From a bacterium (GTDB lineage Bacteria > Zhuqueibacterota > QNDG01 > JAFGCO01), in contig JAFGCO010000056.1 in NCBI GenBank assembly GCA_016932575.1, positions 124,001 through 188,000 on the forward strand: a stretch of DNA of 64,000 nucleotides, read 5' to 3'. Below the pieces are notes generated by a model. The model ran no database searches. It saw nothing but the letters and a program-made list of their open reading frames with translations, and had not been told where the DNA came from. The stretch's first letter is position 1. Each line of letters starts with the position of its first letter. Shown here one piece after another: positions 55,270-62,645 of the stretch. The translations under genes were made by a program, and so were the position numbers.

Positions 55270-57693
55270 TTAAAATCGCATTCCGAGATCTAAATAGAAT
55301 TTCGATTGAGAATCCCTTGGAACCTGCATTCCCCTGCTTCCGAGACCATAACCAAGCGATATAAGCCCCAATCGGCTCCTGATTTTAATGCCCACGCCTG
55401 TTCCCCACAGCGGATAATCTGAAAGCCAGAGGCCTTTTTGAAGTGCATGCGCCTGATTTGCACATAAATATACCAAAATATCTTTTGTAAAAAAATACTG
55501 ATATTCTCCTCGATACAGGATAAAATCGCGACCTGTTAATTGATCATAATCCATGCCTGCAAAACTGTCCGGGTGCCCTTTATTAAAATACTTATACATT
55601 GGCAGGTGTTTTGATCCGTATCCATAAAATCCGTACAGCCGGAAAAGATGTTTTTGTGTGATAGGCAGATATGCATCCAAAGCCAGATAAAAGCGCTGAT
55701 AGGATGTATCACTTTTCCATGATTTCCGGCTGATTTCAATATCGGCCACAGCATTTATTCCGCTTGTGGGCATCAAAGCATCGTTATAAGTATCAATATG
55801 GCCACATACATGAAAACAATTGAAATGCGCTCTACTTGCAGATAATAATTTTGACTCAGGAAAACCGATAGATGACTTGATCCTTACTTGTTCGGATTGC
55901 GCTTCAATGTCGAGATTGACGTTGTTATCAAGTTGGATGCCGCAACCTGCTGCCCATAAATAACTTCGATCTTTGTACTGGGCTTCCCGCCTTCCGTATC
56001 CGTCGTGAATATTGGTTGGAATATCTTTGAACGACTGTCGCATATATGGATAAACCGGCAGATTTAATGTACGGGAAGGATAATAAAGTTTGTTCCAAAA
56101 ACGATATAGTCCGGCAAATTGAAATTCATTTTCAAATCGGAGCCCGGGAATGATCATGCTGTTAATCTGTAATCCGATAACACCAACCAGTTTTCTGTAA
56201 TCATCATACCGAAGACCCAATCGTAATTCACGCATAGGCAACTCTTTCACAAGCACTTTTAAATGCACGAAGCTCTCCTCGACCGGGATGATTTCGTATT
56301 CCACATATTCAAAATAATCGAGCCCATAAAGACTGAGAATATTCCTGTTTAATTTTTTAATATTCAGTGGATCTCCCGGTTGAATGCCTAAAAATCCATA
56401 AATAAGAGAAAAAGAGATATTTTCATTGCCCTCGACTGTCACACGGTAAATGACAGGCATTTCCGATTCTTCAACATGAATAAGCAACCGAACAGACACA
56501 TCGGATACGGGAATGGTTTCATAATAAATTTCCTGAAACTTTTTTTCCCTCATCAGCTCATTAATTTTACAATCGAGATTTTGATAAAAAAAAGGCCGAT
56601 GGGTTTCGAGCCCCAAAAAATGATAGATAGAGTCAAAGGGTGTGGAGGCCGGCCCGATAATCTGTACATCACTCAATATCGGCTGTTTCTTCAACATCGG
56701 CAGCTGACTGGGATTCGAAACACGCTCCAGTCGATAAAGTTCCTTGAAATCAATCAGATCCGATTTCAACTCTCGGGCAGCCCTGTCGCCTGCTTCTATT
56801 ATTTTATGAATTTTATAATGGGAAAAATCACTTGTCATATACTGTATCACATCCGGATAAATGACCAAATCCGCTTTTTGAATGTTTTGTCTCCATCGGT
56901 CAATGCCCATTAAATGTGTGGATCTTTCCAAAACATTCAATGCATTGTTCAGGTGTTCTCTTGGCACCCGGTGTCCGATGACATCCACAGCGAGAATAAT
57001 TTCTGCTCCCATATCTTTGACAACATCGACTGGCAGATTATTAACCATACCGCCATCTACCAGCAGAGAATCGCCCCATTCAACAGGGCTGAAAATCGTT
57101 GGAATGGACATCGTGGCCCGTATGGCTTTAGATAAAGATCCGGATCGCAGAACCACTTCATTGCCGGTAATTAAATCAGCAGCGACACACCTGAAAGGTA
57201 CAGGCAATTCGTCAAAATTACGAATTCGCCCATACGGATAGGTTATATCAGAAAACAGAAGCGATATCTTTTGTCCGTATATCATACCTGTCGGAATGGT
57301 CGGCATTGTTCCTAAAATTCCGATTTCAATGAGATATCGTCCTGTCTGCTGCTTTTCGATATACGGGAGCAATTTTCGAGCTGGTTGATCCGAAAACAGA
57401 TTTTCCCAATCAATTTCACTGACCAGTGATTCCAGTTCTTCACCTGTATATCCGATGGCGTATAATGCACCAAGAATACCTCCCATGCTTGTTCCGGAAA
57501 TATAATCTATAGGAATTTCCAGTGAATCCAGCATCTTCAATACACCGATATGTGCAAAACCCTTGGCTCCGCCGCCTGACAATACCAGACCGATTTTCGG
57601 ACGGTAGGTGCTGTCCGGAAACGCTGTGAGACCAGAATACATCCAGGTCCAGAGAATCAGCAGACTGAAGAAAGTAACTTTCAATCGATGCAT
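55270..57693 (-). CDS. Patatin-like phospholipase fused to POTRA and outer-membrane barrel domains
   Basis: An 807-residue exported protein. After a signal peptide comes a patatin domain with GGGAKG (40-45), the nucleophile Ser69 in GTSMG and Asp213 in DGG, a complete Ser-Asp dyad. A POTRA-like region (about 350-490) and a C-terminal BamA/Omp85-type barrel ending in aromatic phenylalanine (DLGMRF) follow. This is the architecture of type Vd autotransporters such as PlpD, whose patatin domain has phospholipase A activity. Starts at 57720 or 57726 would overlap the M16 gene; the ATG with GTGAG just after the M16 stop was preferred. Confidence 0.87.
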   Translation of the reverse strand: MHRLKVTFFSLLILWTWMYSGLTAFPDSTYRPKIGLVLSGGGAKGFAHIGVLKMLDSLEIPIDYISGTSMGGILGALYAIGYTGEELESLVSEIDWENLFSDQPARKLLPYIEKQQTGRYLIEIGILGTMPTIPTGMIYGQKISLLFSDITYPYGRIRNFDELPVPFRCVAADLITGNEVVLRSGSLSKAIRATMSIPTIFSPVEWGDSLLVDGGMVNNLPVDVVKDMGAEIILAVDVIGHRVPREHLNNALNVLERSTHLMGIDRWRQNIQKADLVIYPDVIQYMTSDFSHYKIHKIIEAGDRAARELKSDLIDFKELYRLERVSNPSQLPMLKKQPILSDVQIIGPASTPFDSIYHFLGLETHRPFFYQNLDCKINELMREKKFQEIYYETIPVSDVSVRLLIHVEESEMPVIYRVTVEGNENISFSLIYGFLGIQPGDPLNIKKLNRNILSLYGLDYFEYVEYEIIPVEESFVHLKVLVKELPMRELRLGLRYDDYRKLVGVIGLQINSMIIPGLRFENEFQFAGLYRFWNKLYYPSRTLNLPVYPYMRQSFKDIPTNIHDGYGRREAQYKDRSYLWAAGCGIQLDNNVNLDIEAQSEQVRIKSSIGFPESKLLSASRAHFNCFHVCGHIDTYNDALMPTSGINAVADIEISRKSWKSDTSYQRFYLALDAYLPITQKHLFRLYGFYGYGSKHLPMYKYFNKGHPDSFAGMDYDQLTGRDFILYRGEYQYFFTKDILVYLCANQAHALQKGLWLSDYPLWGTGVGIKIRSRLGLISLGYGLGSRGMQVPRDSQSKFYLDLGMRF

Positions 57694-57703
57694 CAGTCTC
57701 ACG

Positions 57704-60550
57704 TTATTTATCTTTTTCATGCTCATTCTCAGGAAAAAGCACAACCCGGACGTAATTTTCAAATCCAAAGCACATCATTGCGAGCTGCCTTATATCGACA
57801 GCTTTCAATGCCTGAACAGTTTCAGGGTATGTTAAAATATCAAGCCGGTCTCTGCCATACAAATCCAGCTGATACAACTGATTCAGCCAGTAACTGTTCT
57901 TTTTCAAATGAATTTCATAGGTTCTCAGATGGTTTTCCTTAACTTTTTGAATATCTGTTTCTTTCGGGCCGGTCTGCTTTAACGTATCAATTTGCATGAT
58001 AATTGCTTGTGTGAGTTCATCAACCCGATCGGGTTCGCATCCAAAAGATATGCGAATGTCAAACGTTTCCTTGGGAATTTTATAGATGCTTCCGGATACA
58101 CGGACACCATAAGAACCACCCAGTTCCTCCCGGATGATCTTTCTTAGACGAATACGCAAGACATCCATCATGGCCTGTAACATGTATTTCCGGGCGCTAT
58201 CAAATTTTATGGATCCTGTAAATATCAAATTCACCAGACTTTTAGATTCCATACCTCTGAATACATATTTTTCAATATGGCCTTTTGGTGTTTCAATGCC
58301 CAAATCACGCCATGATTCATTTCGACCGATATCCGGTAAACTGGCAAGATACGTCAGTATATAAGGTTTAATGGATTCAACAGTAAAGTTACCCACAAAA
58401 TAAAAAGTAAAATCCGATGCATCTGCAAATCGGTCTTTGTAAAATTGATAAGCATACTCAAGATCAATCTCATCCAGCATGTCATTGGACCATGGTCTTT
58501 TTCTGGGATGGTACTGCGCCATTGTGACCTGGATCGTATCATAGTAAGCGGATTCGGGTTTGACACTTCGGTTTTTCAAAAAACCCCGGATGCGTTCTTT
58601 ATAAGAGAGATATGCTGTGGAATCTCTGCGCGGAGCAGTGAAATAAAGATAAATCAATTGAAAAAGTGTTTCCATATCCTGGGGAGAACATTGACCGGAC
58701 AGACCTTCTGTGAGTCCGCTGATTTCAGGTGAAACATGTACAATCTTTCCCGCCAGTTTTTTCTGCAGCAATATATTATCGAACCTCCCCACACCACTTT
58801 CCTGGATGATTGCAGAGGCTGCGCTTGCCGCAATTGCCAATGAGTCAGGAGCCAGTGAAGTTCCGCCCCAGCTACCGGCAATAAAAAGGATTTCATCATT
58901 TTTAAAATCTGTGGGCTTAAGAACGACCCGAACCCCATTATTCAAATGCCATTCGATCAGGTTTAATGGTTCAATTTGAGTGGTTTTAATAATTTCACCA
59001 GGATGAGGCAATTCGGAAATAAGGGGATGGTTGTCGATTTTATCTTCATAAGGTTCGATTTCTATCATCTGAACATCCTTAAAAATTTGCAGAATATCAG
59101 ATTCATCCGGAAAAAACAAATTTGATTTCTCAGGACCACTGACAAGAATAACCAAGTTACCATCACTTATCCATCTCCTGGAAAGTGCATTTACCTCCTG
59201 GAGAGAAATCTTCGGTACAAATTGCTGAAAAAGGCGATACTCATAATCGATGCCAGGAGCGGGCACATTATTTGTAAAATAACGCACGTATTCCGAGGCA
59301 TATTGACTCGATTCGGCTTTATCTCTCTCCTGAAAAAGCTTTTCCATAAATCGTAGCATTCTGATTTTTGTGCGTTCCAGTTCGCTCTCTGTAAAACCAA
59401 ACATTCTTACGCGACGGGCTTCCTTCAGCAGTACCTCAAGACCATGTGCAATTTCACAGTCTTCTACAATAGCACCCAATGTATAGGCGCCTTTTGTTAC
59501 TGTCAAATCACTGTTTCCTGAAAAAGCAGCCAGGTACGGAGGATCCTCTGTATTTAACAGCTCATTTAAGCGGATATTAAACATACTGTCATAAACAGAC
59601 TCGAGAATTGACCTTCGATAATCCGAAACGGTTTCTTCCGGTAACAATTCATATTTGTAGGTAAGATCGATACGGGTTTGAGTAGCTTCAGGATCTGTGA
59701 CGATCGAGACCTTTGTGTCTGAATGATCTGGAATCTGAAATCTTTTTCGCTTCTTTTTATTTTGAGGATTTTCGAATCTGCTAAAATTTGAATGCACCAA
59801 TTGTTCGATCCAGGATGAATCAAAATCCCCGACAGCAATCACTGCCATTAAATCAGGACGATACCAATCTTTGTAAAACTGTCTTATAGTTTGACAGTGA
59901 AAAGTATCGATCACAGCAGGATCACCAATAGGAAGGCGATCTGCATACCTGGATCCATAAAACAACACCGGTAACTGCTGGTCCCGTATTCTGGCATTGG
60001 CTCCCCGTCCCAACCGCCATTCTTCAAGAATCACACTTCGTTCCTGATCGATCTCTTTCTCTTCAAATTGAATATATTGTGCCCAGTCCGCAAGAATCTG
60101 AATTCCGGTCTCCACAATTTTCAGACTGTCCGTAGGAACTTCAAGCATAAATACGGTTACATCAAAACCAGTATACGCATTGATTTCAGGACCGAAACGC
60201 ATACCGATGGATTCCAGATAATCTACCAAGGTTTGTCGTTTAAAATGCCGGGTTCCGTTAAAAGCCATATGCTCACAAAAATGAGCCAGCCCCTTTTCAT
60301 TCTCCTCTTCCAGAATTGATCCGGCATTGACAACCAAGCGCAATTCTGCCCGAAATTCTGGTTTCCGGTTCGCCTGAATGATATACTGTAATCCATTATC
60401 CAGTTTTCCGAAAATCGCATCAGGATTTCTGGGAAGCGTATCATTGATCTCGTATTGGACATCTTCATATAATTCTTTGATAACCGCAGGCTGTTTTGCA
60501 CAGAAAATGAAAACCGACGGCAAAATACACAGGTAAATCCATACCTTCAT
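57704..60550 (-). CDS. M16 family zinc peptidase
   Basis: A 948-residue exported pitrilysin-family protease with two M16 halves. The inverted zinc motif HFCEH is at 90-94 (His90, Glu93, His94), and the third ligand is probably Glu170 in EKEIDQERSVILEE. The second half (from about 500) lacks the zinc motif, as usual. An N-terminal hydrophobic segment ending near FIFCAKQ acts as a signal; it is a poor lipobox. The ATG at 60550 has AAGGGG upstream. It precedes the patatin-barrel gene by 10 bases. Periplasmic or surface peptide degradation is likely. Confidence 0.92.
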   Translation of the reverse strand: MKVWIYLCILPSVFIFCAKQPAVIKELYEDVQYEINDTLPRNPDAIFGKLDNGLQYIIQANRKPEFRAELRLVVNAGSILEEENEKGLAHFCEHMAFNGTRHFKRQTLVDYLESIGMRFGPEINAYTGFDVTVFMLEVPTDSLKIVETGIQILADWAQYIQFEEKEIDQERSVILEEWRLGRGANARIRDQQLPVLFYGSRYADRLPIGDPAVIDTFHCQTIRQFYKDWYRPDLMAVIAVGDFDSSWIEQLVHSNFSRFENPQNKKKRKRFQIPDHSDTKVSIVTDPEATQTRIDLTYKYELLPEETVSDYRRSILESVYDSMFNIRLNELLNTEDPPYLAAFSGNSDLTVTKGAYTLGAIVEDCEIAHGLEVLLKEARRVRMFGFTESELERTKIRMLRFMEKLFQERDKAESSQYASEYVRYFTNNVPAPGIDYEYRLFQQFVPKISLQEVNALSRRWISDGNLVILVSGPEKSNLFFPDESDILQIFKDVQMIEIEPYEDKIDNHPLISELPHPGEIIKTTQIEPLNLIEWHLNNGVRVVLKPTDFKNDEILFIAGSWGGTSLAPDSLAIAASAASAIIQESGVGRFDNILLQKKLAGKIVHVSPEISGLTEGLSGQCSPQDMETLFQLIYLYFTAPRRDSTAYLSYKERIRGFLKNRSVKPESAYYDTIQVTMAQYHPRKRPWSNDMLDEIDLEYAYQFYKDRFADASDFTFYFVGNFTVESIKPYILTYLASLPDIGRNESWRDLGIETPKGHIEKYVFRGMESKSLVNLIFTGSIKFDSARKYMLQAMMDVLRIRLRKIIREELGGSYGVRVSGSIYKIPKETFDIRISFGCEPDRVDELTQAIIMQIDTLKQTGPKETDIQKVKENHLRTYEIHLKKNSYWLNQLYQLDLYGRDRLDILTYPETVQALKAVDIRQLAMMCFGFENYVRVVLFPENEHEKDK

Positions 60551-60640
60551 GAGGATCCCCTTTCTTATCCAATAATAAATATTCATATGATTTTACAATA
60601 CTTTATTGAAATTTACAATATTCTTTTTATAAAAAATAAC

Positions 60641-60693
60641 TTGACAACAGGAAAAATTATTATATATTGTAGCATATCTACTACATTGTAGTA
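60641..60693 (+). promoter_or_regulatory. Promoter with BlaI/MecI-type palindromic operator
   Basis: A consensus TTGACA (60641-60646) and TATATT (60663-60668) are spaced by 16 bases. Directly downstream lies a perfect palindrome TACTACA-T-TGTAGTA (60679-60693), which matches the TACA...TGTA core bound by BlaI/MecI repressors. Further half-sites (TGTAG at 60668-60672, TGTTACA at 60698-60704) flank it. The repressor gene starts at 60722, so autoregulation is expected. Confidence 0.82.
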
Positions 60694-60721
60694 TATCTGT
60701 TACATGCTTATTGGAGAGAAA

Positions 60722-61102
60722 ATGAAATTGCCCGAGCTTTCAAAACCAGAGTACGATATTTTACGGATCCTTTGGAAAAATGGAAGACAATCAGTAAGAG
60801 AGGTTCACGACACATTGCATCCGATCTACCAGTGGGCCTACACAACCACAAAAACCATGATGGACCGCATGATACATAAAGAACTGCTATCAAGAGAATC
60901 GTTTCATGGGGTGTATCTGTATCATCCGCTGATTTCGCGTCCGAGAGGAATCGCCCGCATGGTTCAGTTCTTTGCGGATCGTGTTCTCGAACTGGATGCG
61001 ACAACCGTGGTTTCCATGTTTGCCAAGAGCCACGCGCTGACACCAAATGAAATTGCAGAGCTCGAAGCATTATTGGAAAAACAAAAATCGGAAGAATCCT
61101 GA
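60722..61102 (+). CDS. BlaI/MecI/CopY family transcriptional repressor
   Basis: A 126-residue winged-helix repressor. The opening LPELSKPEYDILRILWKNG and SVREVHDTL, followed by AYTTTKTMMDRM, are typical of BlaI/MecI. The C-terminal helices serve dimerisation and would be the site of proteolytic inactivation. The ATG lies 5 bases after GGAG. It overlaps a promoter/operator with a perfect palindrome and is followed by the M56-M23 gene after 1 base, so the pair forms a repressor-protease unit. No beta-lactamase or penicillin-binding protein gene is attached. Confidence 0.93.
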   Translation: MKLPELSKPEYDILRILWKNGRQSVREVHDTLHPIYQWAYTTTKTMMDRMIHKELLSRESFHGVYLYHPLISRPRGIARMVQFFADRVLELDATTVVSMFAKSHALTPNEIAELEALLEKQKSEES

Positions 61103-61103
61103 A

Positions 61104-62600
61104 ATGGCACCGCTTATTCCTGAAATACTCCGCATCAGTGCCGGTCTTTTTCAATGGCTGGTCAGGCAGATGATTTATTCAACAGTCATCATCCTCCCGG
61201 TCCTGCTGATTCTGCATATGTATAAAAAAAGTTCCATCCAGTTCAAACAGACATTGTGGTTGCTTTTCTGGATTCGACTGATCTTACCGCCCGATTTTTC
61301 ATTTTTATTCAGTCTGCGTCAAATGCTGAGCAGAATTCTATTGCTTCAGACGCAACTTTCCACAACGGACCCTGTGCGCCCTGTTTCTTTATTAATTTCA
61401 AATATTTCGAATCCGGTGATTTCAAATCTGTTTGAGATGTCCGTGCCTTTTCATATTTATCTATTTTCAACCCTGTTCTTTCTCTGGTTTTGCGGATTGA
61501 TATTTTTCGGATTTCTCTATGTGAGAAGCATGCGATTTTATAAAAAGTTGATCGATACGTCGAAATCGGTATCAAACAAACGAATCATTTTTATTTTGGA
61601 AAAGTGGAAAAAACGGTTACGGCTGCATCGCGATATAAAACTCGTGACTGCCAGACGCGCCATCTCTCCGTTTGCTACTGGCATATTTCATCCCACTTTG
61701 TTTATACCTGCATCACTTCTTGAATCTGGTAACATCTCATTGCTGGAATCGGTTATTGCACATGAACTGGCCCATATCCGGTACTGGGATACCTTCTGGA
61801 TACACTGTCAGTCCTGCCTTCAGATTATCTATTTTTTTCATCCGGCGGTATGGATTGCGGGTCATCATACAAATGCAATCAGAGAATCCCTGGCGGATTT
61901 GTCTGTGATTCAAAATAACAGGTTCTCGCGAGACCTTTATTCCCGTTGTTTAATTGCATTAATCAAACTCAACTACATGGAGGCTTATATGAAAGCATCA
62001 ATCTTAAACAATAAAAAAACGCTGTTTAACCGAATTGCAATACTTGGATCTTTGTATCGGCTTTCTTTTTCAAAATGTACGGGTCTGGCTTTTATGCTTA
62101 TTGCCGCAGTTTTTCTGATTTTACCCATGCATGAAAAAACAAGGGCCGTCGAAATAGCTCAGTCGTCTCAACAAAAATGCGTTTCATTACCTGAAAATCA
62201 CATTTTTTGCTCTCCCCTTCCGGATCAAAAGATAGTTTTGACTTTCGGACCTGCGCTACATCCATTCAATAAAAAGGATTATCATCATAACGGCGTGGAC
62301 ATATCCGGCAGAATTGGCACACCCATTCTCGCTGCGGCGAATGGTTATATCTGCATCGCAAATGACCCTGTCATGCTGAAAAAAGGATTCGGTCATCATG
62401 TAATGATTCAACACAAACAGGGATTTCAGACTTTATATGCGCATATGGATACGGTTCTGGTCAGGTATGGTCAAGTGATAAAACAGGGCGATTGCATTGG
62501 AACAGTTGGAAATACCGGTTTATCTACCGGGCCGCATCTGCATTTTGAACTTCATCTGAACGGTGAACCGGTCAATCCGGAAAAATACTTGACGTTTTAA
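61104..62600 (+). CDS. BlaR1-like M56 membrane protease fused to an extracytoplasmic M23 endopeptidase domain
   Basis: A 498-residue membrane protein. The first 340 residues are a BlaR1/MecR1-type M56 protease with helices near 20-40, 48-65, 116-140 and 325-343. The zinc site HELAH is at 220-224 with a likely third ligand Glu261 (RESLADLSV). Where BlaR1 has its penicillin-binding sensor, this protein has an M23 domain with all ligands: His395/Asp399 (HNGVD), His447 (YAHMD) and His478/His480 (HLHFE). It would sense or process peptidoglycan outside and cleave the BlaI-type repressor inside, by analogy with BlaR1. It starts 1 base after the repressor stop and is followed by a terminator. Confidence 0.9.
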   Translation: MAPLIPEILRISAGLFQWLVRQMIYSTVIILPVLLILHMYKKSSIQFKQTLWLLFWIRLILPPDFSFLFSLRQMLSRILLLQTQLSTTDPVRPVSLLISNISNPVISNLFEMSVPFHIYLFSTLFFLWFCGLIFFGFLYVRSMRFYKKLIDTSKSVSNKRIIFILEKWKKRLRLHRDIKLVTARRAISPFATGIFHPTLFIPASLLESGNISLLESVIAHELAHIRYWDTFWIHCQSCLQIIYFFHPAVWIAGHHTNAIRESLADLSVIQNNRFSRDLYSRCLIALIKLNYMEAYMKASILNNKKTLFNRIAILGSLYRLSFSKCTGLAFMLIAAVFLILPMHEKTRAVEIAQSSQQKCVSLPENHIFCSPLPDQKIVLTFGPALHPFNKKDYHHNGVDISGRIGTPILAAANGYICIANDPVMLKKGFGHHVMIQHKQGFQTLYAHMDTVLVRYGQVIKQGDCIGTVGNTGLSTGPHLHFELHLNGEPVNPEKYLTF

Positions 62601-62611
62601 TAAGCAACAAC

Positions 62612-62645
62612 AAAAAAGGGGGGCCCGTTTGCTGCCCCCTTTTTT
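62612..62645 (+). terminator. Intrinsic terminator after the BlaI/M56-M23 unit
   Basis: An 11-bp stem (A6G5/C5T6) closes a 12-base loop and ends in a T-run, 11 bases past the stop codon. The A-run on the other arm lets it also work for the converging MATE gene. Confidence 0.88.

What the first reader, a model, noticed from the sequence alone, without database searches (positions are those of the whole stretch)
60641..62645. BlaI-type repressor paired with an M56 protease whose sensor is an M23 peptidoglycan endopeptidase
Seen: a perfect TACTACA-T-TGTAGTA operator over a consensus promoter, a BlaI-family gene, then one protein with an intact HExxH M56 site and an intact M23 zinc site, closed by a terminator. 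Known: BlaR1/MecR1 use a penicillin-binding domain to sense beta-lactams and trigger BlaI cleavage. Inferred: here an enzyme or pseudo-receptor for peptidoglycan replaces that sensor, so the unit may report wall damage or lytic fragments. No resistance gene is attached, so targets must lie elsewhere. I recall M56/M23 fusions annotated in Bacteroidota, so the architecture may be known while its function is not.
Basis: partly seen in the sequence, partly recalled or inferred. Interest (0 to 1): 0.68.

Follow-up and report, generated by a model that had tools for sequence, protein, structure and literature searches.

The report
BlaR1-like receptor with wall-peptidase sensor
A two-gene bacterial control unit pairs a BlaI repressor with a BlaR1-type membrane protease that carries a cell-wall (M23) peptidase domain instead of the penicillin sensor; relatives suggest that this domain works as a wall sensor and that the unit mainly controls itself.

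Summary
In detail: promoter, palindromic operator, blaI (60722-61102), M56-M23 fusion (61104-62600), terminator. It is not a one-off: the BlaI clade (47-71% identity) gave 63 loci in KSB1/Calditrichota, Desulfobacterota, Gammaproteobacteria and others, nearly all followed by an M56 gene. The M56 half keeps every catalytic residue mapped in S. aureus BlaR1 and matches its fold (Z 18); the M23 half matches ShyA and DipM (Z about 22) and is predicted periplasmic. Two results stand out. First, in 39 M23 domains of the clade the three zinc ligands are always kept, but the LytM His260-type histidine is lost in 16 (at least 6 changes on the tree); stand-alone zinc-intact M23s of the phylum keep it in 48 of 48. 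That favours binding/sensing, although the window's own copy is fully intact. Second, the operator is essentially private: an exact copy occurs once, at the blaI operon, in most genomes tested, so 'targets must lie elsewhere' is not supported. Best reading: a self-contained BlaR1/BlaI-type loop with a peptidoglycan-recognising sensor (confidence 0.6). The M56+M23 combination is already listed in a review (PMC9662197), without a function.

The parts
60641..60668 (+). sigma-70-type promoter TTGACA-16-TATATT
   Evidence: 11 of 12; similar layout upstream of related blaI genes
60668..60704 (.). BlaI operator region: core palindrome TACTACA-T-TGTAGTA (60679-60693) inside an imperfect 18-nt inverted repeat
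   Evidence: recurrent upstream of related blaI genes
60722..61102 (+). BlaI/MecI/CopY-family repressor, 126 aa (alternative in-frame ATG at 60704)
   Evidence: PF03965 5.4e-27; S. aureus BlaI/MecI structures 1sd4, 1okr; cleavage-site Phe (F100) invariant in clade
61104..62600 (+). M56-M23 fusion, 498 aa: BlaR1-type membrane protease plus periplasmic M23 domain
61158..62045 (+). M56 (BlaR1-type) protease region, residues 19-314; HELAH 220-224, E261, D265, Y279, R310
   Evidence: PF05569 1.2e-28; BlaR1 8exs Z 18.0; residue mapping against PMC9834060
62283..62579 (+). M23 (LytM-type) domain, residues 394-492; Zn ligands H395, D399, H480; catalytic His H447, H478
   Evidence: PF01551 2.9e-32
62613..62645 (+). 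intrinsic terminator
   Evidence: 12-bp stem, U tract, -17.8 kcal/mol

Best explanation
This is a BlaR1/BlaI-type signalling pair with a changed sensor. BlaI dimers hold the palindrome just downstream of the -10 box and repress the blaI-M56/M23 operon (inferred from family, site position and conservation). The receptor has four transmembrane helices with both ends outside, a cytoplasmic gluzincin (M56) site and a periplasmic zinc-binding M23 domain (shown by sequence, predicted structure and topology). When the M23 domain engages peptidoglycan peptide (crosslinked stem or turnover fragment; inferred), the change passes through the membrane as in BlaR1. The M56 site is released by autocleavage in the loop 10 residues before R310 and cleaves BlaI next to its invariant Phe (inferred from BlaR1/BlaI homology). 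The operon is then derepressed. No other convincing operator copy is found, so the loop is mainly self-contained: its detectable output is more receptor-protease and, in this intact copy, possibly also more membrane-tethered endopeptidase.
For: BlaR1 active-site residues in PMC9834060 (H201ExxH, D210, E242xxxD246, Y261, R294') have counterparts H220/E221/H224, D229, E261/D265, Y279, R310, invariant (Y279 nearly so) in 31 fusions. M56 part of the model matches BlaR1 8exs, Z 18.0 over 252 residues; M23 part matches DipM Z 22.7 and ShyA Z 21.8. The residue 10 before R310 is Phe in most fusions, as F284 stands to R294 in BlaR1. BlaI Phe at the N101|F102 site is invariant in 14 BlaIs. Four TM segments with charges fitting outside N and C ends. 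Operators upstream of 33 of 62 relatives against 0.28 in shuffles. M23 zinc ligands kept 39/39, YxH His only 23/39, against 48/48 in zinc-intact stand-alone M23s of the phylum (at least 6 changes on the tree). The C-terminal domain is exchanged for others within the same BlaI clade, as expected of a sensor module. A peptidoglycan dipeptide acts on BlaI in B. licheniformis (PMC3305447).
Against: The focal M23 has all catalytic residues, so it may be an enzyme and not only a sensor. The autocleavage P1' residue is Ile here, not Phe. Ligand binding, transmembrane signalling and BlaI cleavage are all inferred. The fusion/stand-alone contrast is not phylogenetically independent; within the window's phylum alone it is 21/27 against 48/48, p 0.0015. 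The His260-type residue only 'might participate' in catalysis (PMC9662197), so its loss may weaken rather than abolish activity. Eleven clade members have almost no periplasmic domain, so the pair can exist without this sensor.
Confidence: 0.6

Rival explanations
1. The M23 domain is the output, not the sensor: a membrane-tethered peptidoglycan endopeptidase whose amount is adjusted by its own M56/BlaI loop, a homeostat that cuts crosslinks when they accumulate.
For: All five M23 catalytic/zinc residues are intact in the window's copy. No other operator, so the only known product of induction is the fusion itself. Some relatives add a second M23 in tandem or a separate secreted M23 gene directly downstream.
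Against: The YxH histidine is lost in 16 of 39 domains of the clade, which a hydrolase role should not tolerate. Other members have unrelated or no periplasmic domains.
Confidence: 0.2
2. The M23 domain only anchors the protein to the wall or binds a protein partner, like EnvC/NlpD LytM domains; the signal enters elsewhere (for example by the loop between TM2 and TM3).
For: Degenerate M23 folds act as protein-interaction hubs (PMC9662197). Clade members with almost no periplasmic domain exist.
Against: [quoted passage not shown]
Confidence: 0.13
3. One reading: the receptor drives a distant wall-stress regulon through operators spread over the genome.
For: In classical bla/mec systems BlaI controls resistance genes as well. 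G003 (L085) has a second exact operator before a secreted MBL-fold gene. One gene in L197 has a 1-mismatch site about 100 bp upstream. Degenerate sites could have been missed.
Against: Own genome: no second copy at 0-1 mismatch, one at 2 mismatches against 5 for the reversed-pattern control. Single exact copy, at the blaI operon, in G004, G049 and 11 of 14 further genomes. A second site in Desulfosarcina is just a second blaI-M56 copy.
Confidence: 0.12

Closest known systems
BlaR1-BlaI / MecR1-MecI (Staphylococcus, Bacillus licheniformis)
   Same: Operon of a BlaI-type repressor and an M56 receptor protease; same active-site residues, four-TM fold, TACA/TGTA palindromic operator, conserved Phe at the repressor cleavage site
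   Different: No penicillin-binding (SxxK) sensor, an M23 domain instead; no beta-lactamase or PBP2a gene attached; operator found only at its own operon
M23/LytM peptidoglycan endopeptidases (ShyA, MepM, DipM, LytM)
   Same: Fold (Z about 20-23), zinc site and, in this copy, the catalytic histidines
   Different: Tethered to a cytoplasm-facing M56 protease; catalytic YxH His often lost in the clade while zinc ligands stay
M56+M23 multidomain proteins listed in the M23 review PMC9662197
   Same: Same domain combination
   Different: The review only lists it (among combinations making up less than 1% of database hits) and says a role of M56 in peptidoglycan cleavage has not been shown; no link to BlaI, operator or pseudoenzyme trend in the passages read

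Membership tests
BlaI/MecI/CopY repressors (PF03965) | Penicillinase_R winged-helix and dimer domain above curated cut-off | tested here: met
   94.9 bits against cut-off 22.6, residues 6-119
BlaI/MecI/CopY repressors (PF03965) | TACA...TGTA palindromic operator in its own promoter | tested here: met
   60679-60693; clade-wide. Actual binding not testable here
BlaI/MecI/CopY repressors (PF03965) | Phe at the BlaR1 cleavage site (N101|F102 in S. aureus BlaI) | tested here: met
   F100, invariant in 14 BlaIs; the P1 residue is Met, not Asn
BlaR1/MecR1 receptors | M56 gluzincin with HExxH, ExxxD, Asp210, Tyr261, Arg294 equivalents | tested here: met
   H220-H224, E261/D265, D229, Y279, R310
BlaR1/MecR1 receptors | Four TM helices, N and C termini outside, BlaR1 fold | tested here: met
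   Predicted: (8exs Z 18.0)
BlaR1/MecR1 receptors | C-terminal penicillin-binding (class D beta-lactamase-like, SxxK) sensor | tested here: not met
   Residues 394-492 are M23; NCBIfam blaR1_generic matches only its positions 2-325 of 585, 95.6 bits against cut-off 400. So it is not a BlaR1, though it probably works like one
M23 peptidases (PF01551) | Hx3D and HxH zinc motifs | tested here: met
   H395-x3-D399, H478-x-H480
M23 peptidases (PF01551) | Peptidoglycan endopeptidase activity | not testable with these tools
   All known catalytic residues are present in this copy, but no assay is possible

The most novel reading that the evidence does not exclude
A widespread class of self-contained receptor-proteases in which an M23 peptidoglycan hydrolase has been turned into a zinc-dependent peptidoglycan receptor (as BlaR1 turned a class D beta-lactamase-like domain into a receptor). 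Since its BlaI seems to control only its own operon, the true output may be M56 cleavage of cytoplasmic or membrane targets other than BlaI.
Probability: 0.25. Interest if true: 0.68.

Novelty: new variant of a known kind. Interest (0 to 1): 0.52.

Why it matters
BlaR1-BlaI is known for sensing beta-lactams. A conserved sister unit that reads peptidoglycan itself would give Gram-negative and candidate-phylum bacteria a direct wall sensor, and would suggest what BlaI-M56 systems do outside antibiotic resistance. The repeated loss of a catalytic histidine with an untouched zinc site gives a direct test of enzyme against receptor, and cultured carriers exist (Pseudoteredinibacter, Gilvimarinus).

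Tried and rejected
Distant regulon: operator searched at spacers 1 and 2 with up to 2 mismatches in the own genome and in relatives; nothing above chance except paralogous blaI-M56 operons and the L085 site. Conserved neighbour gene as output: neighbours differ; only a PF00756 esterase recurs, in 4 loci. Viral spread: no relative in viral contigs. Full-length plasmid copies: none covering 80% or more. Rfam and tRNA: nothing in the window. Alternative sensor domain of L094 folded: pLDDT 56, too poor to use. BlaR1 did not show among the listed Foldseek rows, which M23 chains filled; the VIA second look found it.

Full report
OBSERVATION. TTGACA-16-TATATT is at 60641-60668. The palindrome TACTACA-T-TGTAGTA is at 60679-60693, inside a larger imperfect inverted repeat, 60668-60704. 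A BlaI-family gene runs 60722-61102, and one base later starts a 498-aa protein, 61104-62600, with PF05569 at residues 19-314 and PF01551 at 394-492. A 12-bp terminator stem closes the unit at 62613-62645. The palindrome lies just after the -10 box, roughly over the expected transcription start, rather than over the promoter hexamers.

IT IS A CONSERVED UNIT. A search of 59 related genomes found full-length M56-M23 proteins at about 30-36% identity in about a dozen, each with a closely related BlaI directly upstream where the contig reaches that far. An 82-genome scan of the phylum found full or partial fusions in about 20. BlaIs of these relatives are 55-70% identical to the window's, whereas the genome's two other BlaIs are only distant (1e-11 and 1e-14, against 1e-37 or better for the clade). 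Scanning GTDB genomes with the BlaI alignment gave 63 loci: KSB1/Calditrichota, Desulfobacterota, Gammaproteobacteria (Cellvibrionaceae, Kangiellaceae), Neomarinimicrobiota and a few others. An M56 gene follows in nearly all that are not cut by a contig end. Contig lengths of G006, G043 and others equal those of KSB1-type MAGs, so the window's genome belongs with that group.

THE RECEPTOR IS BUILT LIKE BLAR1. The S. aureus BlaR1 structure paper (PMC9834060) names H201ExxH, D210, E242xxxD246, Y261 and the swapped R294. The window protein has H220ELAH, D229, E261/D265, Y279 and R310, invariant or nearly so across 31 fusions. The autocleavage Phe284 stands 10 residues before R294; the residue 10 before R310 is Phe in most fusions and Ile here. 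The repressor's cleavage-site Phe is invariant. The AlphaFold2 model (pLDDT 82) matches BlaR1 8exs at Z 18.0 over 252 residues for the M56 part, and DipM, ShyA and EnvC LytM domains at Z 21-23 for the M23 part. Four hydrophobic segments with fitting charge flanks put the M23 domain outside.

THE M23 DOMAIN: SENSOR RATHER THAN ENZYME? In 39 M23 domains of the clade the zinc ligands (H, D, H) are kept in all. The first His of HxH is kept in 37. The other active-site His (LytM His260 type, YxH) is kept in only 23, replaced by Gln (10), Arg (3), Tyr (2) or Lys (1). Of stand-alone M23 proteins from the same phylum with an intact zinc triad, 48 of 48 keep it (Fisher p 3e-7; counting only fusions of the window's phylum, 21/27 against 48/48, p 0.0015). 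On the BlaI+M56 tree the label needs at least 6 changes. Rows are not independent and deep branches are weak, so the p values overstate the case. The review PMC9662197 says that this His 'might participate' in water activation. The window's copy is fully intact, so for it an enzymatic role is open. The C-terminal domain is also exchanged within the BlaI clade: tandem M23, ankyrin repeats, two unassigned domains, coiled coils, or almost nothing. That is what a sensor slot would do. Independent precedent for peptidoglycan signals in BlaI systems is the gamma-D-Glu-m-A2pm dipeptide that loosens BlaI from its operator (PMC3305447).

THE OPERATOR IS PRIVATE. CTACAWTGTAG occurs once in each of G000, G004 and G049, always at this operon, and not at all in G002 and G020, whose operators deviate. 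TACTACAWTGTAGTA or TGTTACAWTGTAACA is present as one exact copy, at the blaI operon, in 11 of 14 further genomes; the other three have only near-matches. The scattered extra 1-mismatch sites are two inside genes, three intergenic, and one that is simply the promoter of a second blaI with a shortened M56 gene in Desulfosarcina alkanivorans. The genome's other BlaI pair on C39 has its own operator with a 2-base spacer. One exception is L085, with a second exact copy before a secreted MBL-fold protein and an esterase. A distant regulon is therefore not supported; a closed autoregulatory loop is. Degenerate sites cannot be excluded, and the genome is 94.5% complete.

STEPS SHOWN AND INFERRED. Shown by sequence or computed structure: gene order, domains, conserved catalytic sets, predicted topology, operator conservation and uniqueness, and the one-sided decay of the M23 site. 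Inferred from BlaR1/BlaI: repression, autocleavage, BlaI cleavage. Inferred with less support: peptidoglycan peptide as the ligand.

NOVELTY. The M56+M23 combination is known to exist (PMC9662197). The paper searches here turned up no description of the BlaI-linked unit, its private operator or the pseudoenzyme trend; most subscription papers are not in that library. It is a new variant of a known kind: it fails the defining penicillin-sensor test of BlaR1 but probably works like it.

Noticed in passing
L057:6449-8748 (G000:C7, about 11.5 kb before the window): A second BlaI-M56 pair of the same genome; the M56 has a long periplasmic tail that looks like carboxypeptidase-regulatory repeats plus a TonB-like end (by eye, not scanned).
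   Followed up: partly
L058:9026-12572 (G000:C39): A third BlaI-M56 pair; 1049-aa M56 protein with repeated C-terminal units and two CTACAATTGTA operators (spacer 2), distinct from the window's operator.
   Followed up: partly
L081:6369-9167: M56 protein of the same BlaI clade with about ten ankyrin repeats on the predicted periplasmic side.
   Followed up: no
L085:2939-5952: Second exact copy of the operator after the fusion gene, upstream of a secreted MBL-fold protein and a PF00756-like esterase; related esterases also lie near the unit in L082, L094 and L102.
   Followed up: partly
L070, L075, L077, L079, L084, L086 and L071, L087, L091, L094 (C-terminal regions): Two conserved periplasmic domains without a Pfam match occupy the sensor position in Desulfobacterota and KSB1 members.
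   Followed up: partly
L090, L093, L098, L100, L103, L106-L108, L110, L112, L113: BlaI-M56 pairs whose M56 protein ends soon after the last TM helix, with no sensor domain and no M23 gene next door.
   Followed up: partly
L041:430-1932: The G007 fusion carries an in-frame TGA between M56 and M23 (pseudogene, split gene or sequence error).
   Followed up: no
window 55270-57768 (-): Patatin-like phospholipase joined to POTRA and Omp85 barrel domains, next to an M16 protease (57704-60586, -).
   Followed up: no
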